This document shows, in pieces, positions 5,979 to 61,899 of a stretch of 64,000 bases of DNA; the stretch's first letter is position 1; each line of letters starts with the position of its first letter. Under the pieces are notes generated by a model. It was not told where the DNA came from, made no database searches, and saw nothing but the letters and a program-made list of their open reading frames with translations. The stretch is from Desulfoluna sp. (GTDB lineage Bacteria; Desulfobacterota; Desulfobacteria; Desulfobacterales; Desulfolunaceae). The position numbers were made by a program, and so were the translations under genes. The stretch spans positions 62,001 through 126,000 of the forward strand of contig NZ_JAQYWB010000002.1 of NCBI RefSeq assembly GCF_030145185.1, read 5' to 3'.

Positions 5979-7592
5979 GTGGACATCAAACCAGAAGAGA
6001 TGATCAAGATACACAACCCGATCCCGAAGAAGTCGTGGATGGATACGCCACCGGATTTGTCCGAAGGCAAGTTCTGCTATCCCGCCAAGGCGAAGACTAT
6101 GGAATACTTGGGGATTCCCAACGCACGAGACTGGTCTCCTGCCGACGAAGACTGGAAGCTTCCTGAAAACTGGCAGCAGATCATTCATGAAGGTTTCAAG
6201 GATCGCCTCGACAAATACCGTTCCCTGAAAGTGTTCATGGATATTTGTGTCCGCTGCGGCGCCTGCGCCGATAAATGTCACTTTTTCATCGGCTCGGGCG
6301 ACCCCAAGAACATGCCGTTCCTTCGGGCCGAGCTGCTCCGAAGCATCTACCGAAACGACTTCACCGCCCTGGGCAAGCTCCTCGGTAAAATCGGCGGTGC
6401 CCGCAAAATCACCCCCACGGTCATCAAGGAGTGGTTCTCCTATTTCTACCAGTGCACCGAATGCCGCAGGTGTTCCGTCTTCTGCCCCTATGGCATCGAC
6501 ACCGCAGAGGTCACCATGATGGGCCGCGAGCTTCTCAGCCTCCTCGGCATCAACATCAACTGGATCTCGGATCCCGTGGCCAACTGTTCCAAAACCGGGA
6601 ACCACCTGGGCATCCAACCCCAGAACTTCAAAGAGATCGTCGAGTTCTTCTGCGAAGACATTGAAGAGATCTCCGGCATCAAGATCAACCCCAGCTTCAA
6701 CCGAAAAGGCGCAGAGATTCTCTTTGTCACGCCTTCAGGGGATGCCTTTGCCGATCCCGGTACCTACACCTTTATGGGGTACCTGATGCTCTTCGAGCAC
6801 ATCGGCCTGGACTACACCCTTTCCACCTATGCCTCCGAGGGCGGCAACTTCGGTCTCTTCACCTCCTCGGACCAAATGAAGAAGCTCAACGCCAAGATGT
6901 ACCACGAAGCCGAACGCCTGGGCGTTAAGTACATCCTCGGCGGCGAGTGCGGTCACATGTGGCGCGTCGTCAACCAGTACATGGGGACGATGAACGGACC
7001 GGCGAACTTCCTGGAGGTTCCCAAGAACCCCATCACCGGCACGGTATTTGAAAACTCCGCGTCCACGAAGATGGTTCACATCGCTGAGTTCACCGCCGAC
7101 CTCATCAAGCACAACAAGCTCAAGCTCGACCCGAGCCGTAACGATCACCTCAACGTGACCTGGCACGACTCCTGTAACCCGGCCCGAGCCATGGGGATCC
7201 TGGACGAGCCCCGTTATGTGCTGAAAAGCGTCTGCAACAACTTTCATGAAATGCCGGTCAACACCATCCGTGAGCAGACCTTCTGCTGCGGCTCCGGTGC
7301 AGGCCTCAATACCGAAGAGATCATGGAACAGCGCCTTCGTGGCGGCCTGCCCCGTGCCAACGCGGTCAAGTACGTCCACGAGAAGTACGGCGTCAACTCC
7401 CTGGCCTGTATGTGCGCCATCGACCGGGCGGCCCTGCCCCCCCTGATGGATTACTGGGTACCTGGTGTCGATGTCACGGGTCTCCACGAGCTGGTGGGCA
7501 ACGCCCTGGTCATGGATGGTGAGAAAGAACGAACCTTAAACCTGAGGTTAGAGGATTTACCTGGAGCGGAGGGTGATTCTGATGAAAGATAA
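5979..7592 (+). CDS. dsrK: DsrK, HdrD-like iron-sulfur subunit of DsrMKJOP
   Basis: The product has 537 residues. Two ferredoxin-type clusters are visible: CVRCGACADKC near residue 90 and CTECRRCSVFCPYG near 159. The CCG-type half sites HDSCNPAR (about 396) and FCCGSGAGLN (about 435) build the noncubane cluster shared with heterodisulfide reductase HdrD. The protein is cytoplasmic and is thought to reduce the DsrC trisulfide made by sulfite reductase. The start is GTG at 5979, only 3 bases after the dsrM stop, with AAAAGGAG 8 bases upstream. The end overlaps dsrJ by 11 bases. No dsrC is present in the window. Confidence 0.97.
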   Translation: MDIKPEEMIKIHNPIPKKSWMDTPPDLSEGKFCYPAKAKTMEYLGIPNARDWSPADEDWKLPENWQQIIHEGFKDRLDKYRSLKVFMDICVRCGACADKCHFFIGSGDPKNMPFLRAELLRSIYRNDFTALGKLLGKIGGARKITPTVIKEWFSYFYQCTECRRCSVFCPYGIDTAEVTMMGRELLSLLGININWISDPVANCSKTGNHLGIQPQNFKEIVEFFCEDIEEISGIKINPSFNRKGAEILFVTPSGDAFADPGTYTFMGYLMLFEHIGLDYTLSTYASEGGNFGLFTSSDQMKKLNAKMYHEAERLGVKYILGGECGHMWRVVNQYMGTMNGPANFLEVPKNPITGTVFENSASTKMVHIAEFTADLIKHNKLKLDPSRNDHLNVTWHDSCNPARAMGILDEPRYVLKSVCNNFHEMPVNTIREQTFCCGSGAGLNTEEIMEQRLRGGLPRANAVKYVHEKYGVNSLACMCAIDRAALPPLMDYWVPGVDVTGLHELVGNALVMDGEKERTLNLRLEDLPGAEGDSDER

Positions 7593-7965
7593 AGGCAAAA
7601 TAATAGCCGGGGTGGCCATCTTCGCCGCCCTGGTTTCCTTCCCGTTCTGGTACAACACGGGAACGGCCAAACCTGCACCGGAGCTGATCCTCGCGCCGGA
7701 AGCCAAAGCGGCTGTGACATGTATCCTCCCCAAAGACCAGATGGCCAAGGAGCACATGCAGCTCCTCGACGGCTGGAGAAACTCGGTGGTTCGTGAAGGC
7801 CAGCGCGTCTATGTGGCGGAAGACGGCAAAAAGTACGACATGAGCCTGTCCAACACCTGCCTGGAGTGTCACACCAACAAGGCGGATTTCTGCGACAAGT
7901 GCCATGATTACGCCGCTGTTAACCCCTACTGCTGGGATTGCCACGTGAATCCGAAGGAGAAGTAG
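7582..7965 (+). CDS. dsrJ: DsrJ, triheme cytochrome c of DsrMKJOP
   Basis: The product has 127 residues from the ATG at 7582, which sits 8 bases after GGAGGG; an upstream GTG at 7573 would fall inside that ribosome-binding site. One N-terminal helix (about 6-23) is a signal or anchor. Three heme c motifs follow: CLECH, CDKCH and CWDCH. A lone cysteine at residue 47 (AVTCILP) matches by position the Cys46 of Allochromatium DsrJ, a reported axial ligand of a His/Cys heme. The protein faces the periplasm and passes electrons within the complex. It overlaps dsrK and is followed 2 bases later by dsrO. Confidence 0.95.
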   Translation: MKDKGKIIAGVAIFAALVSFPFWYNTGTAKPAPELILAPEAKAAVTCILPKDQMAKEHMQLLDGWRNSVVREGQRVYVAEDGKKYDMSLSNTCLECHTNKADFCDKCHDYAAVNPYCWDCHVNPKEK

Positions 7966-7967
7966 TG

Positions 7968-8750
7968 ATGAAAGAAAGCAGAAGAAGCTTCCTGAAGATC
8001 GCTGGAGTATCCGCACTGGGCGTGACAGCAGCGTCCAACGCCCACGCCATTGGCGAATACTTCATCCCTTCAGAGCAAGCCATTAAAGACCAGAAAGTCA
8101 GCACGGCAGACCGATGGGGCATGGTCATCGATACCCGTAAGCTCACCCATGAGCTGAACGAGAAAATCGCCAAGTCATGCCACCTGAACCACAACGTGCC
8201 CACCCTTGAGAACAAAAACCACGAGATCAAGTGGATCTGGGAAGAGCACTACGAGCACGCCTTTACACAGCAGCCGAATGAGTTCCAGGCGGAGGAGACA
8301 GCCCACGCCCCCATCCTGACTCTGTGTAACCACTGCGACAACCCTCCCTGCGTCCAGGCCTGCCCCACCAAGGCGACCTTCCAGCGGGAAGACGGTATCG
8401 TTCTCATGGACTTCCACCGCTGCATCGGCTGCCGCTTCTGCATGGCTGCCTGCCCCTATGGTTCCCGAAGCTTTAACTTCAGGGATCCCCGGGATGCAAT
8501 GGAGGATGGAAAACCCACCAACCCCGAGTTCCCCACCCGCACCAAGGGTGTCGTGGAGAAGTGTAACTTCTGCGCGGAAAGACTGGCCGTTGGCAAGGAT
8601 CCCTACTGCGTAGAGGCCTCTGAGGGCGCCCTCGTCTTCGGTGACCTCTCCGATGAAAATTCAGAAATTCGGAAAGTCCTGAAAGAGAACTACACCATTC
8701 GGCGAAAGGCCAGTCTTGGTACCGGGCCTTCGGTCTTTTACATCGTTTAA
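7968..8750 (+). CDS. dsrO: DsrO, periplasmic iron-sulfur subunit with Tat signal
   Basis: The product has 260 residues. The chosen ATG at 7968 follows AAGGAGA by 7 bases and exposes a twin-arginine signal (SRRSFLK) with a short hydrophobic stretch ending near NAHA, so export is folded, via Tat. Cysteine groups CNHCDNPPCVQACP, CIGCRFCMAACPYG and CNFCAERL...YC resemble the NrfC/HybA class of [4Fe-4S] proteins. DsrO hands electrons between the cytochrome DsrJ and the membrane subunit DsrP. It is placed between both in the operon with gaps of 2 and 12 bases. Confidence 0.95.
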   Translation: MKESRRSFLKIAGVSALGVTAASNAHAIGEYFIPSEQAIKDQKVSTADRWGMVIDTRKLTHELNEKIAKSCHLNHNVPTLENKNHEIKWIWEEHYEHAFTQQPNEFQAEETAHAPILTLCNHCDNPPCVQACPTKATFQREDGIVLMDFHRCIGCRFCMAACPYGSRSFNFRDPRDAMEDGKPTNPEFPTRTKGVVEKCNFCAERLAVGKDPYCVEASEGALVFGDLSDENSEIRKVLKENYTIRRKASLGTGPSVFYIV

Positions 8751-8762
8751 CGGGAGGTCATC

Positions 8763-9920
8763 ATGCTTGAAAAAGCATTAAGCGGAAGCAGAAATTACTG
8801 GCTGTGGATTGCCGGTCTGATGGCCGTCATTGCGGTGGCCTTTATGGGATACCTGCAGCAATGGGAGTTCGGTCTCGGCGTCACCGGCATGAGCCGTGAC
8901 GTCTCCTGGGGCTTTTACATTGCCCAGTTCACCTTCCTCGTCGGCGTCGCCGCCGGGGGTGTGATGCTGGTGCTGCCCTACTACTTGCACGACTACAAGG
9001 CCTTCGGCCGCATCACCATCCTGGGGGAATTCCTGGCGGTGGCGGCGGTCGTCATGTGCCTGCTCTTCATCCTGGCCGACCTTGGCCAGCCCAAGCGCGC
9101 CATGAACGTGATCTTCAACGCCACACCCTACTCGATGCTCTTCTGGGATGCCCTGGTTCTCAACGGCTATCTCCTGCTGAACATCGTCATCGGGTGGAAG
9201 CTCCTTGAAGCGGAGAGAAATGCGGTCCCTGCTCCCAAATGGATCAAGTATCTCATCTATCTTTCCATCCCCTGGGCCTTCGGCATCCACACCGTGACCG
9301 CCTTCCTTTACTGTGGCCTTCCCGGTCGTGGTTACTGGCTCACGGCGATCCTTGCCCCCAGGTTCCTGGCCTCGGCCTTTGCCGCCGGTCCCTCGTTTTT
9401 GATCCTCCTTTGCTTCATCGTTCGCAAAGTGACCAAATTCGATCCCGGCACAAAAGCGATGCAGACCCTCATGAAGATCATCACCTACGCCCTGATTGCG
9501 AACGTGTTTTTCCTCCTCTGTGAAATCTTCACCGTTTTTTACAGCCAGATCCCCGAGCACATGGACCACCTGAAGTATCTCTTCTTCGGACACGGTGACA
9601 AGGTGGCTCTGGTACCCTGGATGTGGACCTCCATGTTCCTGATGCTTTCGGCCATCGTCCTTCTCGTGATTCCCAAAATCAGAAACAACGAGAAGTACAT
9701 GCCCTTCATCTGCATCATGGTGTTCGTCGGAACCTGGATCGACAAAGGCATGGGCATGATCGCCGGTGGCTTCGTCCCCAACGCCATGCACACCTACCAC
9801 GAGTACACACCGACCCCCCTGGAGATTCTCATCACCGTGGGTGTCTACGCCACAGGCCTGCTCGTCGTGACGATCCTTTACAAGATCGCCACACAGATCA
9901 AAGAAGAGGTCAACGCGTAA
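8763..9920 (+). CDS. dsrP: DsrP, NrfD-family integral membrane subunit
   Basis: The product has 385 residues and about ten membrane helices, with the NrfD/PsrC-type sequence WGFYIAQFTFLVGVAAGGVM early on and FAAGPSFLILLC in the middle. It is the second quinone-interacting module of DsrMKJOP and pairs with DsrO. The ATG follows GGGAGGTCATC. It is the last gene of the operon; a strong terminator lies about 50 bases downstream. All five subunits have expected length and motifs, so the complex appears complete. Confidence 0.96.
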   Translation: MLEKALSGSRNYWLWIAGLMAVIAVAFMGYLQQWEFGLGVTGMSRDVSWGFYIAQFTFLVGVAAGGVMLVLPYYLHDYKAFGRITILGEFLAVAAVVMCLLFILADLGQPKRAMNVIFNATPYSMLFWDALVLNGYLLLNIVIGWKLLEAERNAVPAPKWIKYLIYLSIPWAFGIHTVTAFLYCGLPGRGYWLTAILAPRFLASAFAAGPSFLILLCFIVRKVTKFDPGTKAMQTLMKIITYALIANVFFLLCEIFTVFYSQIPEHMDHLKYLFFGHGDKVALVPWMWTSMFLMLSAIVLLVIPKIRNNEKYMPFICIMVFVGTWIDKGMGMIAGGFVPNAMHTYHEYTPTPLEILITVGVYATGLLVVTILYKIATQIKEEVNA

Positions 9921-9971
9921 GCAACGCTTTTTTATAGGTTGTACGAATCCGGAACGCCAACTGGATTGTTT

Positions 9972-10009
9972 AAAACCCGCCCTCCTGGAAACAGGGGGGC
10001 GGGTTTTTG
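9972..10009 (+). terminator. Rho-independent terminator of dsr operon
   Basis: AAAACCCGCCC pairs with GGGCGGGTTTTT across a short loop, followed by a T-rich stretch. It lies about 50 bases after the dsrP stop and closes the operon. Confidence 0.88.
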
Positions 10010-53125: not shown

Positions 53126-53203
53126 TGGCGTCCCCAAGGGGATTTGAACCCCTGTCGCCGGCGTGAAAGGCCGGTGTCCTGGACCAGGCTAGACGATGGG
53201 GAC
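53126..53203 (-). tRNA. tRNA-Glu (TTC)
   Basis: The minus strand folds as a tRNA: acceptor GTCCCCA/TGGGGAC, anticodon loop CTTTCAC (anticodon TTC), T loop GGTTCAAATCC, and an encoded CCA. It is the third gene of a Phe-Asp-Glu cluster. Confidence 0.95.
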
Positions 53204-53231
53204 GCAATATTTCTTTTCTTTTTCAGGTTTA

Positions 53232-53308
53232 TGGCGGGAGTGACGAGACTCGAACTCGCGACCTCCAGCGTGACAGGCTGGCGTTCTAACCAACTGAACT
53301 ACACCCCC
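53232..53308 (-). tRNA. tRNA-Asp (GTC)
   Basis: The minus strand shows acceptor GGGGGTG/CACTCCC with one G-T pair, anticodon loop CTGTCAC (anticodon GTC), T loop GTTCGAGTC and an encoded CCA. Confidence 0.95.
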
Positions 53309-53329
53309 GCAACCCGAAAGGTTGTCAAG

Positions 53330-53405
53330 TGGTGCCCAGGGGCGGAATCGAACCACCGACACGGGGATTTTCAGTCCCCTGCTCTACCGACTGAGCTACC
53401 TGGGC
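53330..53405 (-). tRNA. tRNA-Phe (GAA)
   Basis: The minus strand shows acceptor GCCCAGG/CCTGGGC, anticodon loop CTGAAAA (anticodon GAA), T loop GGTTCGATTCC and an encoded CCA. It is the first gene of the cluster, just after the promoter. Confidence 0.95.
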
Positions 53406-53421
53406 TCACCGAACGAGAGAA

Positions 53422-53450
53422 GGTTTAAAGAAATTTGCCGGTGGTGTCAA
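53422..53450 (-). promoter_or_regulatory. Promoter of the Phe-Asp-Glu tRNA cluster
   Basis: On the minus strand TTGACA (53445-53450) is followed after 17 bases by TAAACC (53422-53427), about 17 bases before tRNA-Phe. The -35 is perfect; the -10 is weak. Confidence 0.6.
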
Positions 53451-53854
53451 CCAAAAGCTCAGCTTTTTTTCCAAAAAAATGAGCCTGTAAACAAATGCCA
53501 CGTGATTGCGATCGGTTATCCATCAGACACCTTCATCCGCCCAGGGTCTCCCCCTGCCCCAGGAGCCTCTTCCCGCCACTTGGTACCCCAGGGAAAAAGT
53601 CCCCTTCTGCCACCCCACCCCAGCCGCCCTTTAATAACAAGGATGCCCCCACCCTTTGGAACCGCTTTAACGGCCCCTCAGGTCGCCTTAAGGCGACCCA
53701 CCCATTCCGGCTCTGCCCTCCCGGCACCCCCGCCCACAAAAAGAGATGCCGCCGCCTGAACGCAAACCACAGACACGGCACCTGAAACCAAGGGCCCTGG
53801 CAGATCCCCTCCTGCCCCAAAAAACAATCACGGCAACTTTTTTTCATTTTGGGG

Positions 53855-53884
53855 TTGACTCAACGGAAGAGATGGCGGTATAAA
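53855..53884 (+). promoter_or_regulatory. Promoter of tRNA-Gly
   Basis: TTGACT (53855-53860) and TATAAA (53879-53884) have an 18-base spacer and lie 15 bases upstream of the tRNA. Confidence 0.75.
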
Positions 53885-53898
53885 CTCTCCCGTGCTGA

Positions 53899-53973
<75 letters not shown>

Positions 53974-54557: not shown

Positions 54558-55198
54558 TACCCCAGCGATTCTCCCACGACCAAAACGGTCACCTCGGTGA
54601 GCATGGGTTTGCGGTGAAGAATGGTGGTGATATTGCAAATTCGCATGGGCGCGTTGCAGTCAGAGCAGACACCGGTGATGGCGCAAGGGGTGTCCACGCC
54701 CAGGCTTTTGGCGCGCAAGGGGCCGGCCACCTCCCGGATACGACGCAGGGCGGCGTGAAGGTCCGAGGCGACTTTGTTGTAGCCGGCCACCACCACCACG
54801 CGGGACGGACCGAAGCCCATGGCGCTGGTGCGGTTCCCGATGCCATCCATGTTGACGATCTCTCCGGTCTCACTCAGGGCGTTGGCGCTGGTAAAAAAAA
54901 GGTCGCAGCCCTGCTGGCCCTTTCGAATGGCCAGGGTCTCGTCGTAGGTGAGGCCGGGGCGATGATGGTCAAAGAGCTCTTTGCCCATCTCCTCGGCCAG
55001 GGTGTGAAGGCCCAGGGAGCGAACGGTATCAGACCCGCCAAAGCCCACGGTGGTGGCTTCCTCCAAAAAGGGCCTCACCCGCTCCGCCACCTCCTCTGCG
55101 GTCTCCAGATAATGGGCATCAAAACGGTGTTTGGACAGACGGTCCACGCAGCGTTGGGCCCGCTGCGCAAGAAGCCATGTTTTTTCATCTCCGGTCAT
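54554..55198 (-). CDS. LUD domain protein (LutC/YkgG-like)
   Basis: The product has 214 residues. TVGFGGSDTVRSLGL, LFFTSANALSETGEIVN and VVVVAGYNKVASDL are typical of the LUD (DUF162) family, whose members LutB and LutC serve L-lactate oxidation. A CSDCNAPMRIC segment near the end could bind a metal or cluster. No lutA or lutB is adjacent, so a lactate role is not established. It lies downstream of trmH on the same strand, 36 bases apart. Confidence 0.88.
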   Translation of the reverse strand: MTGDEKTWLLAQRAQRCVDRLSKHRFDAHYLETAEEVAERVRPFLEEATTVGFGGSDTVRSLGLHTLAEEMGKELFDHHRPGLTYDETLAIRKGQQGCDLFFTSANALSETGEIVNMDGIGNRTSAMGFGPSRVVVVAGYNKVASDLHAALRRIREVAGPLRAKSLGVDTPCAITGVCSDCNAPMRICNITTILHRKPMLTEVTVLVVGESLGY

Positions 55199-55234
55199 CT
55201 GTGTCTCCTTTCGTTAAAAGTCTCGGATGCAGAG

Positions 55235-55921
55235 TCAGGGAAGCTTCCCTGCCCCTTTTTGCTCCTCGAGGACCAGGAAGCCCTCGTCATTGATGGGGGG
55301 ATAGGGTTTCCCCTGTTTTTGATAATACGGCACCAGCCGGGGATACCCCCACTCGAACAAAAGGGCCTGATAGGTCGCATCGTCCATGGAGCGCTCGTCG
55401 TACATCCCTTTTTCCAGGCGCTGTCTCTGGGCTTCGTAGAGGATCAGGGCGGTCGCCACGGAGACGTTAAGAGACTGAACCATCCCCAGCATCGGCACGA
55501 TCATAGACCCATCGGCCTTGGCGACCGCCTCCTCGGTGATCCCGTCGAGCTCCGCGCCCACCACGATGGCCGTGGGCAGCGTAAAGTCCACCGCGCGAAA
55601 ATCTACGGCCCCTTCGTCAAAGTGGGCACAGAGGATACGAAGCCCCTGGCTCCTCAGGTGGGCATAGGCCTCGTCCACGCTGCCGTGACGCTTGACCCCC
55701 ACCCATTTCTTGCTCCCGCTGGCCGTATGCGACCTTAAAACCACCTCCTGCTTCGCGCTGATGGCATGGGTCTCAAAGACCCCCACCGCATCGCAGCTTC
55801 GGGCCACCGCCGCCAGGTTATGCGGCTTATGCACATTCTCCATCACCACGGTCAGATCCATCTGCCGGCTCTTGAGGATGGCCTTCAATTTTTCAAAACG
55901 TTCAGGTGTCATACACGTCAT
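55235..55921 (-). CDS. trmH: TrmH, tRNA (guanosine-2'-O)-methyltransferase
   Basis: The product has 228 residues. The SPOUT knot motifs are clear: MENVHKPHNLAAVARSCD (motif 1), VVGAELDGITEEAV (motif 2) and MVPMLGMVQSLNVSVA-like SIIVPM...QSLNVS (motif 3). It methylates the 2'-OH of G18 in the tRNA D loop using SAM. It probably shares its mRNA with the LUD gene. Confidence 0.93.
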   Translation of the reverse strand: MTCMTPERFEKLKAILKSRQMDLTVVMENVHKPHNLAAVARSCDAVGVFETHAISAKQEVVLRSHTASGSKKWVGVKRHGSVDEAYAHLRSQGLRILCAHFDEGAVDFRAVDFTLPTAIVVGAELDGITEEAVAKADGSMIVPMLGMVQSLNVSVATALILYEAQRQRLEKGMYDERSMDDATYQALLFEWGYPRLVPYYQKQGKPYPPINDEGFLVLEEQKGAGKLP

Positions 55922-56043
55922 TCCATTTCTCTAATATTCTGCCGCACGAAGCCATGGCTGAGTGGCCGGTGTCTATTTTCTTCCAAACCATGCCACATCC
56001 TCAAGAATAATTCACGACGATTTGGCGCCTGCAGAAGGGGGCT

Positions 56044-59000
56044 TCACAAGGGAGGCCTGTCGGGTCTCTGATACGCCGGAGGGAGACTTTTAAACAGCTT
56101 GATCTTCCCGGAGCCCCCGGCCTGGGCATGGGCCAGATCGGCCACGGGGAGCCCCACCGACTGAACGGAAAACAGATTGGCTCCCTCCTGGCGATAAAGG
56201 GTCCGCCTCCAGGGTTCGTAATACGGAGAGACCGCGAGGCTGCCGCCGTAAAACCCGGTGTTGCAGATGACCACGTTGCAGTAGAGGGTCTTGGAGAGGG
56301 CGTCGGCCAAATGGTAAAAGGAGTCAATGTCCCGGTTGTAAGCCAGAACAAAGAGATGGTGAATCTGCCCCCGATAGATGGCGTAACGTTCCACATCCAT
56401 AAAATCGTAGCAGATGCAGACCCCGATCCGGCCGTACCCCCCGGCATCGATGATCCAGACCGCAGGATCCGGCACAAAGGTGTTCCCACTCCTTACAATC
56501 CCGCTCTCCTCGGGCGGGGCCATGAAACTCTTGCCAAACCAGAAGGTGCTGCATCGTCCGGACTCACGGGGATTTAGCCAATGCCGCGGGACGGTCACCA
56601 CGGCCCGATTGCGAACTCGCTTGGTCTCGGGGTTCACCAGGTAGTCCACCCCGGTGACCACCGCCACCCCGCTTCGAATGGAGAGGCGCTTGAGGCTCTC
56701 CAGCCGATGCACCGGCAGGGCCAGCTCCGGCATGACGATAAACGAAGGGATGGGGCCTGCCTGGGTGAGAATTCGAAACCCCTCCCGAATCTGGTGCCAG
56801 GCACGGTCGCCCTCGGCCCGACTCATGCGGGGCGTCTCCTTCCAGGCGGCCCGGGCGTCGGTGGTGGTCTGAATAAACCCGACCCGCAGCAGGGGTCGAT
56901 AGGCCCCCTGCTGGAGGTCCCTGGCGGCGGTGGCGTGGTGGACCATGGAGACGGGAATCAGCTGTCTCAGGTGCCGGGTCCGTCCACCGGATTGATGACG
57001 TTCCAGGGTCTGCATCGCCGCCTCCACCTGACGGTGAAAGACGGCAAGATCACCGCAGACAGGAGGATCAAGCAGGGTGTCATCCCCGTCCACATCGCCT
57101 CCCTGCCGCCGAATAATCAGGGTTTCCAATTGGCGCGGCTCCAGGACCCCCAGAAGAAGCCGCCGGGTGTCAGACGAGATAGACAGGGACTCAATCAGGC
57201 CGTGGATGGGCACATCCGTCAGGTGGCCAAAGGGATGCGCGAGGTACCCGGGAAGGTCGAAACAGCGCCGGAGGGTTCCCAGCAGAATCAAGGCCAGACT
57301 GCGTGTGGCGGCCCACACCAGCTGCCGCTCACCCAAGGCCTCTACCGGGGGAATCACCCCGCCCCCTGCCCCCTCCGGGGAAAGACGCGGGAGTGCCTCG
57401 GTGACCTGTCGGCGCCAGGATTCCCAGGAAGAGACGTGACCCCCATCTCCCCCCCAGCACCTGGGAATAAAAACCTCCTCGGGCTGGAGACACCGCGCCC
57501 CGTCTTTCATCAGGTGATGGCAGGCCTGACGGGCGACAAACAAGGCGGTCCACTCCGAGGCCCTGGGATCAAAGAGCTCTGCCGAATCCGGCGTCAAAGC
57601 CGTCACCCACTCATTTAAAGGCGTCTCATCCGGCCTCGGCCCGCTTCCGGCCGCCGCAACCCGCTGGGGCCTCCGCGTGTCGAGACGCTGCTGTTCCATA
57701 TAAAAACGAAACGCCGAGACGCCCTTCGGGTCCATGTCTCGGGGCAGCGCCTCCAGTCCCCTCAAGGAAAACCCTCTCTCATCAAAAATCTCCCGGGCGG
57801 CCCCTAAGGCCTCACCGAGCGCCCTCAGTGCGGACGCCACCAGGGGAGACCCCTCCACCCTCAGCGCCAGCCCCTCACGAGCCAAGGCTTCCAGGAAGAC
57901 GCGCGCCCCCTCCCTCTCGCCGTCAAGTCGCCGGACATCGAGGCATATCCGCATGCAGGTGCCCGCCTCCCGTGCCATCCGCCCCAGAAGAAGGGCCGCA
58001 AGGTAAGGCCCATCCTCTCTGTCAAGGGGGAGGCGATCCAGGAGCGGGGCCAGGGTGCTGAAGCCGCTGCGGCGCATGTGGCCGAGGGCTCGACTCCAGA
58101 GCGCAGGAACCTCGGGATAGCGCTCCGCCGCCTCCAGAAGCACCAGAAGGCTGCGCTGTCTCTGACGCACCGAAATCATGCGCTGCTGGTAGAGACGGCT
58201 GGTCACCTCGTCATCGGTGCTGCCGTCGGCGCTCCGTTCCAGGGAACAGACCACCGAATGATCCGGTTCCGAGGCATCGGCCGCCCTGCGCGAGAGAAGG
58301 GCCGAAGCGAAATCGATACGCAATCGCTCCGAAATCCCCGTGCCGGCAAACGGGTCCAGAAGCAGAGACTCCAAGCGTGCGATGTGGTCCCGTTTGCCCC
58401 GACGATCCAAAAGGGTGTAGTCGGCGCTGTGGATGGAGGCCATGGCCTCCACGGGGCGTGTCACCTCAGGAAGAGGGTTGATGGCATCCAACCGCACCCC
58501 GTGATCCGAAGCCGTCCCCGAGGGCCACATCCCTTTAGGCAAGAGGGTGGCCCGGTGAATGCCCCCGAGACCCTTTGCCTGCAACAGGGCCTCATAGGTA
58601 TCGATCCAGCCGGACAGACGCTCTGGGTCGCGTGCGATGATCACGTGCTCCGTGTCATGTCGAAAGTGAGCCACGGCTCCGGTCATGCCCTCGGCGTCAA
58701 AGGCCGCCATCACCGCACGATCCACCGGGAGCATGGCCACATTCAAGAGAAAGCCCGACACGGACAGCTCCGCCGGCAGAGGATTCGGCCCCTCTCCCTG
58801 GCCCTCCCAGGTAAAATCGAGCATATCACCCAAAGCACCCACCGCCTCCGTGCCGATGGAGGAGGAGACCGATTGAACCCCCCGACGGGCCGCGGCCGCG
58901 CCATCCACCCCGGTGGTATCCAGGGTGAAGCTGGCCCAGTAAAGCTGTCGAACCGGGCCACCACCCTTCGGGCCGGAGAGATACGGTGTGGATTCGGGCA

Positions 59001-59544
59001 GAAGAATCCGCCCCTCATCCCCCCTGAAAAAGCCGGGAATCCCCAGCTCACTCTGCAAACCGGTCATGGCTCGGGTCGCCTGAAGAATATGACGCCGATA
59101 GGCGGGCCAGACCCGGGTGGGATGGCGGTAGAGACGGGCAGAGGTCCTGCGGTGCCACCCCTGACGATACCGGGCCATGCCACCGCTGCGATCAATCCAC
59201 TCCGACCGGTGAAGCCGGCTGCCATAGCTCCACAAGGGCATGACGGCCTCCACGGCGGACCCCAGGGCCTGGACCAGGGCGATCCAGAGAACCTGATCGG
59301 ACAAATCCAGGCAAAACCCCACCTCTTTCGGCGTCCGAACCGGCACCAGGGGACGGGGTGAAAAATCACCGGCGGTGAGGCGTCCCTTCAACTCCGCAAC
59401 CAGGGCCGGGGCGTCTACTGCCCGCCTCACCATGGCCCCAATATCCACCCACTCCCCATGCCACATCTCATGGCGAACGAACGTTTGAAACGCCCAGTAG
59501 AGATTTTCCGTATACCCGGCTCTCTCAAGAAACCTCTGATCCAT
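56044..59544 (-). CDS. Reverse transcriptase-nitrilase fusion, DRT type 1-like anti-phage protein
   Basis: The product has 1166 residues from the ATG at 59544; the ribosome-binding region is AAAAAG followed by nine Gs. Residues about 60-340 are an RT palm: motif A YWASFTLDTTGVD (Asp209), motif B LPAELSVSGFLLNVAMLPVD (256-275), and a YxDD position that reads FRHD (294-297), so the first Asp is His. Residues ~345-890 are of unknown fold. The C terminus (about 896-1150) is a nitrilase with Glu940 (MPELALP), Lys1005 (FGKSF) and Cys1045 (CICYDFMD). RT-nitrilase fusions are known as defence-associated RTs type 1. It lies alone between trmH and a small acidic gene. Confidence 0.88.
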   Translation of the reverse strand: MDQRFLERAGYTENLYWAFQTFVRHEMWHGEWVDIGAMVRRAVDAPALVAELKGRLTAGDFSPRPLVPVRTPKEVGFCLDLSDQVLWIALVQALGSAVEAVMPLWSYGSRLHRSEWIDRSGGMARYRQGWHRRTSARLYRHPTRVWPAYRRHILQATRAMTGLQSELGIPGFFRGDEGRILLPESTPYLSGPKGGGPVRQLYWASFTLDTTGVDGAAAARRGVQSVSSSIGTEAVGALGDMLDFTWEGQGEGPNPLPAELSVSGFLLNVAMLPVDRAVMAAFDAEGMTGAVAHFRHDTEHVIIARDPERLSGWIDTYEALLQAKGLGGIHRATLLPKGMWPSGTASDHGVRLDAINPLPEVTRPVEAMASIHSADYTLLDRRGKRDHIARLESLLLDPFAGTGISERLRIDFASALLSRRAADASEPDHSVVCSLERSADGSTDDEVTSRLYQQRMISVRQRQRSLLVLLEAAERYPEVPALWSRALGHMRRSGFSTLAPLLDRLPLDREDGPYLAALLLGRMAREAGTCMRICLDVRRLDGEREGARVFLEALAREGLALRVEGSPLVASALRALGEALGAAREIFDERGFSLRGLEALPRDMDPKGVSAFRFYMEQQRLDTRRPQRVAAAGSGPRPDETPLNEWVTALTPDSAELFDPRASEWTALFVARQACHHLMKDGARCLQPEEVFIPRCWGGDGGHVSSWESWRRQVTEALPRLSPEGAGGGVIPPVEALGERQLVWAATRSLALILLGTLRRCFDLPGYLAHPFGHLTDVPIHGLIESLSISSDTRRLLLGVLEPRQLETLIIRRQGGDVDGDDTLLDPPVCGDLAVFHRQVEAAMQTLERHQSGGRTRHLRQLIPVSMVHHATAARDLQQGAYRPLLRVGFIQTTTDARAAWKETPRMSRAEGDRAWHQIREGFRILTQAGPIPSFIVMPELALPVHRLESLKRLSIRSGVAVVTGVDYLVNPETKRVRNRAVVTVPRHWLNPRESGRCSTFWFGKSFMAPPEESGIVRSGNTFVPDPAVWIIDAGGYGRIGVCICYDFMDVERYAIYRGQIHHLFVLAYNRDIDSFYHLADALSKTLYCNVVICNTGFYGGSLAVSPYYEPWRRTLYRQEGANLFSVQSVGLPVADLAHAQAGGSGKIKLFKSLPPAYQRPDRPPL

Positions 59545-59865
59545 ACCCCCCCCCTTTTTCAAGACTCCAGACAGGATGGTCCTTAACTTCCGACTGGTTA
59601 TCCCTATACACCCAAAATCCCGAGACCTCAACGGGCCAATGGGTTCCCCCTGTGAGGTAAACCGAAACACCGAAAGGGACTCACGAGGTCAACACCCTTG
59701 TTTTACAGAGCATAACAGCCTTGTCATCTCAACGAAAATCATGCCTCATCTTGACACCACGGCAACCCATCTCTTATACTCCCCCTTTGCAATCAGAGAA
59801 CTCACCGACCGCCCTGCCTGCCCGTCCTAAGGCGTCGGCCACTTACCTTATAAAGGAGCCACACC
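59545..59865. other. Divergent promoter region between RT-nitrilase and small acidic gene
   Basis: Holds a good plus-strand promoter (59751-59780). For the RT-nitrilase gene a minus-strand TTGACC (59689-59694) has only a poor -10. A nine-C run (plus strand, 59546-59554) directly precedes the RT start codon. A non-coding RNA cannot be excluded but no clear fold was seen. Confidence 0.45.
59751..59780 (+). promoter_or_regulatory. Promoter of the small acidic gene
   Basis: TTGACA (59751-59756) and TATACT (59775-59780) with an 18-base spacer, about 85 bases before the ATG at 59866. One of the best sigma-70 matches in the window. Confidence 0.7.
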
Positions 59866-60285
59866 ATGACCCATCCCACCATTTTAAATGCCGTTAACGC
59901 CTTCACCGAGAGTTGGACCGAGACGGAAACACGCATGAAGGAAGCCTTTCTAAACCTCAAAGACTACCTCGAAACAAAAGAGGGGGTCACCCTGGATTTC
60001 AACAGTCGCCCCGGCGTCAGCTACTCCCTCAGGGCCTGCCACGCCGCCCAGACGGAGAGGGATCTCTTTGTCATGATGGACGTCATCGACGACGACCCGG
60101 CCGAACGCTGGCTCTCTGTCTGCTTTTACGGAGACATGATCACCGACCCCGAGGAAGAAGGCGACCTGATCCCCGAAGGCCTGAAAGGAAGTGACGGCTA
60201 CTGCTTTGATATGGATGATTATGACGAAGAGAAGGTGGCCTACCTGAAAGCCCGTTTTGATGAGGCCTGCACAAACGCCTCCTGA
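59866..60285 (+). CDS. Small acidic protein of unknown function
   Basis: The product has 139 residues and I do not recognise a family. It is strongly acidic (DVIDDDPAERW, DPEEEGDL, DMDDYDEEKV) and has no signal peptide or membrane helix. A helical start (about 8-40) is followed by a mixed part with GVSYSLRACHAAQTE and LSVCFYGDMI. The ATG has AAAGGAG 7 bases upstream, a near-consensus promoter and a terminator, so it is a genuine, probably well-expressed gene. It diverges from the RT-nitrilase gene; a link to defence is only a positional guess. Confidence 0.72.
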   Translation: MTHPTILNAVNAFTESWTETETRMKEAFLNLKDYLETKEGVTLDFNSRPGVSYSLRACHAAQTERDLFVMMDVIDDDPAERWLSVCFYGDMITDPEEEGDLIPEGLKGSDGYCFDMDDYDEEKVAYLKARFDEACTNAS

Positions 60286-60337
60286 AGAAGACCGGCACCC
60301 ACGCCACCCGAGCCCCTGCCCGGGGGGAGAAAAAAAA

Positions 60338-60377
60338 CAGGCGAGGAGCACTCGCGTGCCACCTCGCCTGGTTTTTT
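60338..60377. terminator. Terminator between acidic gene and yhbY
   Basis: CAGGCGAGG pairs with CCTCGCCTG and is followed by T6 on the plus strand. On the minus strand an A/T-rich run also follows, so it may serve both convergent genes. Confidence 0.85.
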
Positions 60378-60456
60378 GTATACATAAAAGCTTCAAAAAA
60401 ACACGATCACATGAACTTGGAACACCGCTCCACTCTCACGTCATACCGCGCTATTT

Positions 60457-60783
60457 TCACGCAAGATCCTGGCGTGTCTTGGGAACGGTAATCTGCCGTT
60501 TCTTTGAATCTTTCTGGGGACGATAAAAAATGGCCACGTGGCCGATGATACCCGCCAGACAGCTGTCCGTCCGGCTCTCAAGCTCTTCCGAGAGGGTCTG
60601 CTTGGCCTCTTTTTCCTTAAAGTCTAAGAATTTCACCTTGATCAATTCATGGGTGTCAAGGGCCTCCTCCATGGAGAGAATCAAAGCGTCTGTCACCCCT
60701 TTTTGCCCCACAAAAACAACCGGCTTAAACCCGTGGGCCAACCCCCGTAAATATTTTCTCTGAAATCCCTGCAGCTCTTTCAC
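60457..60783 (-). CDS. yhbY: YhbY family RNA-binding protein
   Basis: The product has 108 residues from the GTG at 60783 (GGGAGAGAAG upstream); an in-frame ATG at 60939 adds a low-complexity extension not seen in the family. A CRS1-YhbY (KH-like) domain is visible: GFQRKYLRGLAHGFKPVVFV, VGQKGVTDALILSM and IGHVAIFYRP, with the GxxG-type loop. YhbY proteins associate with pre-50S ribosomal particles. Monocistronic, convergent with the acidic gene. Confidence 0.9.
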   Translation of the reverse strand: MKELQGFQRKYLRGLAHGFKPVVFVGQKGVTDALILSMEEALDTHELIKVKFLDFKEKEAKQTLSEELESRTDSCLAGIIGHVAIFYRPQKDSKKRQITVPKTRQDLA

Positions 60784-61018
60784 GTCACTTCTCTCCCAGG
60801 CCTGCACTGCGGCCTCATCGCTTCGACGCCTTGACGGCACCGTCAAGCATGGTGGTATCGCTTCATTGTGTTTCACGGATGCCCCAAACGGGGCACTGCC
60901 GCAGACCATTCTGCGGCCCCTGTCTCGAAGGGTTGCCATCCATGGCGACCTTCCAAGACCTGCATCATACCTTCACGTCACGTCCAAGGCAAGTCCGTAG
61001 CCTTCCTGTCAATTCTCC

Positions 61019-61047
61019 TTGATAAGTCACATTTCGTCTGGTATACT
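61019..61047 (+). promoter_or_regulatory. Promoter upstream of the TetR regulator
   Basis: TTGATA (61019-61024) and TATACT (61042-61047) have a 17-base spacer. The expected start point is near 61054, just before the palindrome. Confidence 0.7.
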
Positions 61048-61069
61048 GGTGTTAACTTTACGGTATCTC

Positions 61070-61087
61070 GTTTCCATACATGGAAAC
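61070..61087. promoter_or_regulatory. Palindromic operator candidate for the TetR regulator
   Basis: GTTTCCATACATGGAAAC is a perfect 8-base inverted repeat with a 2-base centre, lying about 16-33 bases after the predicted start point. Position and symmetry fit an autorepressor site for the TetR protein encoded downstream. Confidence 0.6.
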
Positions 61088-61281
61088 AGTTACAGCTAAG
61101 CTCGACCCTTCCACACTGCGATAACTATCACTAGAGGTTTAATCAAAGCCCCTTCCATACAGGCTGGTTCAATCCGTCACAATTCGGAGTCGTAACTTCC
61201 ACATACAATCTTTGCGCGCGATGGACGGACCTCTTGTATGCGATCAATAGGCGCATAACGTAACAATCAGGATTCTTGGAC

Positions 61282-61899
61282 ATGATGGACAATAAATCAA
61301 AGTTTCTCAAGCTGAAAGAGGGTGAACGCGAGGCTCGAAGAGAGATTCTCATCGAAGCCACTCTGGAACTTTTCGGCAAGAAACCCTTCGATGAAATCGG
61401 CGTCAGAGACATTGCTGCCGCTGTCGGCGTATCTCCCGCATCGATGTACCGGTATTTCCCCAGTAGAGAAGATCTCTTTGTAGAGGCCTTCATCAAAGAC
61501 CTCCGGGAAATGGAAAAATGGCTCGGCAATCTTTTGGATGCTAACGAGGAGCTCTCTCTGGAAGACTTTTCAGACTCGCTGATCCGATACCTGATTGACA
61601 GCGAGCCCACCTTTCAGATGATGAGCTACCTGATGATCAAGGGGTCCATGACCCCGGACCTGCTGCGCAAATACAACGGCGTTCAGCGGGCCATGCTCAA
61701 CAAATTTGAGCAGGTGCTCAAGCGCAACGGCATCGAATGCTCAGACCGCATCCACGCCCACGCTTTCTACGCCTCTCTCAACGGCATTCTGATGACCTTC
61801 CGAAACTACCCTGGCCGTACCCGCGAGGAGATCGAAAAGCACATCAACCGCCTCTCATCCCTCCTGTGCAAAATGCTTCGCGCCAGCACCGAATCATAG
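61282..61899 (+). CDS. TetR-family transcriptional regulator
   Basis: The product has 205 residues from the ATG at 61282 (CAGGA upstream; an ATG at 61285 is equally possible). The N-terminal helix-turn-helix (about 15-65: REILIEATLELFGKKPFDEI, VRDIAAAVGVSPASMYRYFP) is complete. The ligand-binding half (about 80-200) is helical and too divergent to predict a ligand. A palindromic operator candidate lies in its own leader. No transporter or enzyme gene follows in the same direction, so targets beyond itself are unknown. Confidence 0.9.
   Translation: MMDNKSKFLKLKEGEREARREILIEATLELFGKKPFDEIGVRDIAAAVGVSPASMYRYFPSREDLFVEAFIKDLREMEKWLGNLLDANEELSLEDFSDSLIRYLIDSEPTFQMMSYLMIKGSMTPDLLRKYNGVQRAMLNKFEQVLKRNGIECSDRIHAHAFYASLNGILMTFRNYPGRTREEIEKHINRLSSLLCKMLRASTES

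What the first reader, a model, noticed from the sequence alone, without database searches (positions are those of the whole stretch)
56044..59544. RT-nitrilase (DRT type 1-like) defence protein with an altered YxDD box
The protein keeps RT motifs A and B and a complete-looking nitrilase Glu-Lys-Cys triad (940, 1005, 1045), but where RTs have YxDD it reads FRHD. The first Asp is His, a single base (CAT for GAT) away. If the alignment is right, DNA synthesis may be lost or changed while the nitrilase domain remains. That would point to an RT fold used as a sensor or scaffold. About 545 central residues have no recognised fold.
Basis: partly seen in the sequence, partly recalled or inferred. Interest (0 to 1): 0.65.

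Follow-up and report, generated by a model that had tools for sequence, protein, structure and literature searches.

The report
Inactivated reverse transcriptase fused to nitrilase
A bacterial protein of a virus-defence type has lost the catalytic residues of its DNA-making half, as have the relatives found in related bacteria, while its nitrilase half looks intact, so the nitrilase is probably controlled without making DNA.

Summary
The gene is real: a 1,166-residue minus-strand protein with an RT fold, a helical middle and a nitrilase. It is a fusion of a UG6-type RT with the RT-associated nitrilase, not DRT1. Motif A is not kept (Asp is T207), and motif D Lys is lost. The conclusion is stronger than claimed: 11 of 11 readable Desulfobacterota UG6 RTs lack the motif A Asp and the first YxDD Asp, while 2 UG6 RTs from elsewhere and 8 DRT1/UG5-type references keep both. 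The 10 dead RTs put in a tree form one clade (97/99.5 without motif columns). Between Desulfoluna species the dead RT is under purifying selection (dN/dS 0.17-0.22, like the flanking PabBC gene). Nitrilase Glu-Lys-Glu-Cys is intact. The fusion occupies one chromosomal site in four Desulfoluna genomes; a congener shows the empty site. In DRT1, RT knockout gives a monomer without defence (PMC13275509). This clade has fixed comparable losses, so its nitrilase probably assembles or triggers without DNA adducts. Defence function is untested.

The parts
56044..59544 (-). Fused UG6-type RT / nitrilase gene, ATG start, 1,166 aa (a GTG further upstream would give 1,208 aa)
   Evidence: RTasNitrilase E 1.7e-94 and RT_UG6 E 5.7e-71
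58285..59544 (-). RT-fold domain, residues about 1-420, catalytically inactive by sequence
   Evidence: fold matches to solved RTs: 9d4s_B Z 19.7, rmsd 6.1, 309 aligned; 6ar3_A Z 18.8, rmsd 3.3, 259 aligned; alignment
58924..58926 (-). Motif A position: T207 where active RTs have the catalytic Asp
58747..58779 (-). Motif B remnant LPAELSVSGFL, residues 256-266
58648..58659 (-). Motif C: H296 D297 T298 E299 in place of Y-V-D-D
   Evidence: hairpin in model
58546..58548 (-). Motif D position, residue 333: Lys of intact rows replaced by Ser, Thr or Phe in the dead rows
56905..58284 (-). Middle region, residues 421-880, mostly helical; second half matches RT_UG6 profile positions 660-920
56047..56904 (-). 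Nitrilase domain, residues 881-1166
   Evidence: 5g3o_C Z 20.6, rmsd 3.2, 228 aligned
56725..56727 (-). Nitrilase catalytic Glu940
56530..56532 (-). Nitrilase catalytic Lys1005
56509..56511 (-). Nitrilase second Glu1012
56410..56412 (-). Nitrilase nucleophile Cys1045, aligned with C1116 of solved DRT1
56071..56091 (-). C-terminal tail K1152-SLPPA-Y1158, like the DRT1 lid tail K1219-TQPAG-F1225
55235..55921 (-). Downstream neighbour, SpoU/TrmH-type methylase; one border of the insertion site
59866..60285 (+). Upstream neighbour, 139-aa protein without a Pfam match; other border of the insertion site

Best explanation
The protein is a naturally RT-dead, single-chain member of the UG6 RT / nitrilase group. 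An ancestral two-gene system (active UG6 RT plus separate nitrilase) lost RT catalysis in an ancestor of the Desulfobacterota members. In the Desulfoluna lineage the RT and nitrilase then became one chain and settled at a single chromosomal site. Shown by sequence: loss of the motif A Asp, first motif C Asp and motif D Lys; intact nitrilase tetrad and C-terminal tail; purifying selection on the RT domain; fixed locus. Inferred: the RT fold now works as a non-catalytic platform that holds the nitrilase off or lets it assemble, and that may still bind nucleic acid, nucleotide or a phage product through the retained finger residues. A trigger would then switch on the nitrilase without protein-primed DNA synthesis. 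That the trigger is a phage, and that the outcome is abortive infection, is assumed from DRT1.
For: Motif losses in 11 of 11 Desulfobacterota RTs against 0 of 10 other RT-nitrilase-type proteins. Dead rows form one clade, 100/99.8 with motif columns and 97/99.5 without; one change on the tree. RT-domain dN/dS 0.174, 0.169, 0.215 against 0.159, 0.166, 0.190 for PabBC in the same three pairs. RT fold retained in the model. Pfam RVT_1 above its cut-off in L005 and L058 but no Pfam match in P0001 and no RVT_1 in L006 or L053. Nitrilase tetrad 22 of 22 rows. DRT1-like tail K..P retained. Same neighbours in four Desulfoluna genomes, empty site in G600.
Against: No activity was measured. The known relative DRT1 needs RT activity for oligomerisation and defence (PMC13275509, sections 5 and 6), so by analogy an RT-dead form should not work; either the mechanism changed or the function did. 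Only two intact UG6 RTs were found, both outside Desulfobacterota. The nitrilase tree supports the dead clade only weakly (70/72.9). Long branches meet in the RT trees. In g252 the RT part has higher dN/dS (0.25-0.45) and one of six g252 genomes has the RT in two frames. Model confidence is modest (mean pLDDT 66.9, pTM 0.62).
Confidence: 0.62

Rival explanations
1. Housekeeping reuse: the fused protein has left defence and is an ordinary cellular amidase or nitrilase whose RT part is only a structural cap.
For: Fixed site among core genes in four Desulfoluna genomes; nitrilase is the most conserved part (dN/dS 0.09-0.10); no defence gene among the neighbours scanned with Pfam. By contrast intact L005 lies beside an Eco57I-type restriction-modification gene.
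Against: The separate dead RT gene is kept next to its nitrilase in g252 and Desulfogranum genomes, in different neighbourhoods, which looks like a mobile accessory system. A cap would not need an RT domain conserved at the level of PabBC.
Confidence: 0.2
2. Residual or shifted catalysis: acidic residues D209, D297 and E299 in Desulfoluna form an altered metal site and some nucleotidyl transfer persists.
For: D209, D297 and E299 are present in 4 of 4 Desulfoluna rows; three g252 rows (L053, L054, L060) keep the second motif C Asp.
Against: The sister rows have E, K or N at the 209 position and G at the 297 position; motif A Phe-Tyr and motif D Lys are gone too.
Confidence: 0.08
3. Decaying relic: the RT part is a leftover on its way to loss.
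For: Long branches for the dead rows; in one g252 genome (G794) the RT is split over two frames; g252 RT dN/dS up to 0.45.
Against: Open in 4 of 4 Desulfoluna copies; RT dN/dS 0.17-0.22 with bootstrap upper bounds of 0.29 or less against the window copy; fold retained.
Confidence: 0.05
4. One reading: only the first YxDD Asp is changed, by one base, in a DRT1-like protein.
For: FRHD and CAT are in the sequence.
Against: Register fixed by the gap-free FR....H context in UG6 rows and the model hairpin; motif A Asp absent; best profiles are UG6 and RTasNitrilase.
Confidence: 0.02

Closest known systems
UG6 RT with separate RT-associated nitrilase (PADLOC RT_UG6 / RTasNitrilase), intact example L005 (Elusimicrobia MAG)
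   Same: Same domain order as the operon, RT_UG6 and RTasNitrilase profiles both match, conserved context around motif C, same nitrilase tetrad and tail
   Different: L005 has LDLKRFYP and YVDD and two genes; the window protein has lost the catalytic residues and is one chain
G419 protein (L058): fused UG6 RT-nitrilase with intact motifs
   Same: Single chain RT plus nitrilase, RT_UG6 and RTasNitrilase matches
   Different: Motifs intact (SIDFEKFYPSI, FRFVDDH); very distant from P0001, so fusion in the two may be independent (inference)
DRT1 / UG1 RT-nitrilase (PDB 9YFD; PMC13275509)
   Same: RT, helical middle, C-terminal nitrilase with aligned Cys, tail K..P
   Different: DRT1 has an active RT and needs it: RT knockout is monomeric and loses defence. 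Only the nitrilase part of P0001 matches DRT1 by sequence
Prp8 of the spliceosome
   Same: An RT-like domain inside a protein that acts as a hub (passage of PMC4830896); that it lost catalytic Asps is recalled, not from a call
   Different: Eukaryotic splicing factor, no nitrilase, no homology beyond the RT fold claimed here

Membership tests
UG6 RT with RT-associated nitrilase | Match to the RT_UG6 profile | tested here: met
   P0001 E 5.7e-71 in 3 stretches; two-gene dead relatives L006, L053, L055 match almost the whole profile
UG6 RT with RT-associated nitrilase | Associated nitrilase of the RTasNitrilase type | tested here: met
   E 1.7e-94, residues 878-1160, tetrad present
UG6 RT with RT-associated nitrilase | Catalytic motif A Asp and YxDD of an RT | tested here: not met
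   T207 and T298/E299. Masking test: the RT_UG6 profile rewards YVDD by 18.4 bits and LDLKRFYP by 30.3 bits, but also FGVD by 7.7 and ISFEACIS by 7.3, so its training set probably already held dead members; filed as a UG6 homologue, not as an active UG6 RT
DRT1 (UG1) | Whole-length match to Drt1a | tested here: not met
   Drt1a matches residues 935-1141 only; L059 shows the full-length match for comparison
DRT1 (UG1) | Intact RT catalytic residues (D324/D325) | tested here: not met
[quoted passage not shown]
   needs biochemistry; losses argue against DNA synthesis
Nitrilase superfamily | Glu-Lys-(Glu)-Cys active site in a nitrilase fold | tested here: met
Anti-phage defence system | Protects cells against phage | not testable with these tools
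   no assay; only resemblance to DRT1
Protein kinase-like fold in the middle region | Kinase sequence motifs or profile match | tested here: inconclusive
   VIA-align Z 12.1-12.8 to kinases, within the range the tool warns about for helical domains; no sequence support (Foldseek E)

The most novel reading that the evidence does not exclude
A whole clade of RT-nitrilase systems works with a dead RT. The RT fold has become a sensor and assembly platform that gates the nitrilase by binding a ligand or phage product, replacing the DNA adduct that DRT1 makes for itself. This would be a natural separation of the polymerase fold from polymerase activity within a bacterial immune enzyme, comparable to Prp8 in splicing.
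Probability: 0.45. Interest if true: 0.78.

Novelty: new variant of a known kind. Interest (0 to 1): 0.62.

Why it matters
In DRT1, the one RT-nitrilase solved, DNA synthesis is said to be needed for oligomerisation and for defence, and RT-inactive DRT1 is a monomer (PMC13275509). A natural clade that has dropped RT catalysis but kept the rest under selection gives a direct way to ask what the RT domain does apart from making DNA, what triggers the nitrilase, and what the nitrilase substrate is (unknown for DRT1). It also warns that a profile match to an RT defence family does not prove RT activity: PADLOC names these proteins as RT_UG6.

Tried and rejected
Sequencing error or decay was rejected for Desulfoluna. 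An intact YxDD elsewhere in the chain: the alignments place motif C only at 296-299.

Searches that gave no further relatives: viral contigs, four scans, no relative; phage records, no match; plasmids, 15 records matching P0001 only in its C-terminal part, residue 855 onward, and none matching the L005 RT. RT_UG6 genome searches: 1 of 395 in the phylum sample, 10 of 389 in the class sample, 1 of 242 in the class of G399, 3 of 198, 1 of 95 and 1 of 235 around the Elusimicrobia genomes (G411 is a weak match that reads as Drt1a-like).

Kinase-like middle: 50 of 50 listed VIA rows are protein kinases, Z 12.1-12.8, but Foldseek gave no E below 0.001, Pfam gave no kinase for 7 members, a profile search of PDB sequences gave no kinase, and a comparison with one Pkinase-matching protein was negative. 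Kept as a lead only. The viral fold library gave nothing for the middle. Rfam gave no RNA family in window 55000-61500, and no inverted repeat was found in the upstream stretch 59400-60000. DRT1 9YFD was not among the rows listed by the fold searches; that is no evidence against similarity.

A partner RT in trans: three other RVT_1 matches exist in the genome but were not characterised.

Rows left out: one search left out L068 (no RT part) and L057; one search used 17 of 22 rows, one search used 15, one search used 12 of 13. L004 and L036 (G926) read the same in the stretch compared and were both shown. Seven of the 15 plasmid records were fetched.

Literature: the natural loss was not found in the listings. 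I saw abstract, outline and sections 4-10 of PMC13275509; passages only of PMC8934634, PMC12632851 and PMC4830896; a term search without hits in PMC13213688. The paper that defined the UG/Abi classes (10.1093/nar/gkac467) is not held, so it may already mention dead members.
Full report
What is there. The stated coordinates hold a minus-strand open frame, 59544 to 56044, of 1,166 residues. Pfam and NCBIfam give no match. PADLOC gives RTasNitrilase (E 1.7e-94, residues 878-1160), RT_UG6 (E 5.7e-71, three stretches, best 623-878) and weaker UG5-nitrilase and Drt1a matches limited to the nitrilase part. The only solved relative by sequence is DRT1, 9YFD, again over the nitrilase only.

Relatives. 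One genome scan found six loci: three Desulfoluna species (73-76% identity, same fusion), a Desulfobacterales MAG fragment, an Elusimicrobia MAG and Desulfogranum marinum. In the last three the nitrilase is a separate gene after the RT gene. Genome searches with RT_UG6 added six genomes of one genus in the same order, called g252 here, and G419, which has an intact fused form. One of the six g252 genomes has the RT in two frames.

Register of the motifs. Around motif C the rows read L005 HFRYVDDHTILA, L058 IFRFVDDHVILS, window HFRHDTEHVIIA, L001 HFRYDTEHIVIA, L002 HFRHDAEH, L003 HFRHDLEH, Desulfogranum HFRFGYNH and g252 HFRFGVDH, HFRFGSEH or HFRFGADH. FR and the following His are shared without a gap, so YVDD corresponds to residues 296-299, HDTE. 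Motif A reads GLDLKRFYPSV and SIDFEKFYPSI in the intact rows, and SFTLDTT, CFNVDTS, SFVLDTT, QLSFNTT, QISFEAC, QISFKTC, KLSFNNC or QISFETC in the others, so the catalytic Asp is T, N, V or S. All 11 Desulfobacterota rows lack both the motif A Asp and the first motif C Asp; three of them (L053, L054, L060) keep the second motif C Asp. In a wider alignment all 10 other proteins (two UG6, eight DRT1/UG5-type or related) have the motif A Asp, YVDD or FVDD, and the motif D Lys, and the 10 dead rows used there have none of the three. Comparing 12 rows, 54 of the 160 columns in which the two intact rows agree occur in no dead row; these include D207, F211, Y212, P213, D298 and K333. Of 37 columns invariant in all 12 rows, 11 lie in the finger region 81-165. 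With only two intact rows this count is descriptive.

Register against DRT1. The Desulfoluna DRT1-like protein L059 aligns end to end with 9YFD, and its YVDD falls on the 9YFD YVDD. That row is in the alignment, which ties the window's T298/E299 to the DRT1 pair D324/D325 named in the paper.

Structure. The AlphaFold model of the whole protein (10-row alignment, mean pLDDT 66.9, pTM 0.62) has hairpin strands 291-296 and 299-304. Foldseek and VIA-align match the N-terminal part to group II intron-type and DGR RTs (9d4s_B Z 19.7, rmsd 6.1, 309 aligned; 6ar3_A Z 18.8, rmsd 3.3, 259 aligned) and the C-terminal part to amidases and nitrilases (5g3o_C Z 20.6, rmsd 3.2, 228 aligned). The RT fold is thus predicted to be kept although the catalytic residues are gone.

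Selection. Nei-Gojobori dN/dS of the window copy against three species is 0.174, 0.169 and 0.215 for the RT part, 0.197-0.222 for the middle, 0.092-0.099 for the nitrilase, and 0.159, 0.166 and 0.190 for the neighbouring PabBC gene. Synonymous change is near saturation, so these are rough. Among g252 RTs the value is 0.25 to 0.45, which is weaker constraint and should be weighed against the reading.

Tree. The 10 dead RTs form one clade with support 100/99.8 (17 rows), and 97/99.5 after the motif columns were removed (15 rows); one change suffices. The nitrilase tree agrees but with low support, 70/72.9. The program warns of long branches meeting, so a single loss is likely rather than proved.

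Locus. PabBC, TetR, a YhbY-type protein, a 139-aa protein, the fusion, a TrmH-type methylase and a LUD protein lie in the same order in the window and L001-L003. The fusion is in 4 of 6 genomes of the genus and 0 of 2 others of the family. In G600 the methylase and the 139-aa gene are 194 bp apart; in G601 a response-regulator/GGDEF gene lies between them; in G603 there are 642 bp. The methylases of G600 and G601 are less similar to the window's (75-78%) than those of L001-L003 (85-87%), so a gain in the ancestor of the four is likely (inference; no species tree was made). The two-gene dead form lies in different neighbourhoods in the g252 genomes, and intact L005 lies next to an Eco57I-type restriction-modification gene.

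Nitrilase and tail. Glu940, Lys1005, Glu1012 and Cys1045 are present in 22 of 22 rows, including the 12 rows that go with a dead RT (two of these, L004 and L036, look like the same genome). The C-terminal tail KSLPPAY resembles the DRT1 tail KTQPAGF, in which K1219 and A1223 are reported to be needed for defence.

How it may work. For DRT1, the paper reports that RT activity makes covalent DNA adducts that drive tetramers and filaments, that the D324N/D325N protein is monomeric, and that both RT and nitrilase mutants lose defence. The window protein has lost comparable residues naturally, yet is kept. The most economical reading is that its nitrilase assembles or is triggered in another way, with the RT fold as a non-catalytic platform or sensor. 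The steps shown are sequence loss, retention of fold (predicted), selection and locus. The trigger, substrate and biological role are inferred or unknown.

Known or new. The family is known: PADLOC already holds RT_UG6 and RTasNitrilase. A masking test suggests its UG6 profile was trained mostly on intact members but already includes some of the dead kind: YVDD is worth 18.4 bits and LDLKRFYP 30.3, while FGVD is worth 7.7 and ISFEACIS 7.3. No paper in the searched listings describes a naturally RT-dead clade, but the main classification paper is not held. I rate it a new variant of a known kind.

Noticed in passing
window 56992-57660 (residues about 628-851): The second half of the middle region aligns with protein kinase folds (50 of 50 listed rows, Z 12.1-12.8, about 160 residues) and two-gene relatives have a catalytic-loop-like LHPLNILV; no sequence method supports it.
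   Followed up: partly
L059 (G602:C48) 6117-9998: Desulfoluna spongiiphila also carries a full-length DRT1 with intact YVDD, separate from the dead fusion.
   Followed up: partly
L058 3398-7210 (G419): A fused UG6 RT-nitrilase with intact RT motifs, so RT-nitrilase fusion and loss of RT catalysis are separable.
   Followed up: partly
L057 7543-10847 (G794): The dead RT gene of this genome is split over two overlapping frames while its nitrilase gene is intact.
   Followed up: no
L053 13295-17672: Upstream of the two-gene dead system in one g252 genome lie ApbE, TPR and RRXRR-HNH genes on the same strand.
   Followed up: no
L005 9283-9294: RT and nitrilase are in the same frame, separated by one stop codon, with a possible TTG start just after; a natural step towards fusion.
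   Followed up: no
window 53126-53973: Four tRNA genes (Glu, Asp, Phe, Gly) lie about 2-3 kb from the locus.
   Followed up: no
window 59545-59559: A run of nine G's preceded by a run of A's lies directly before the ATG.
   Followed up: no
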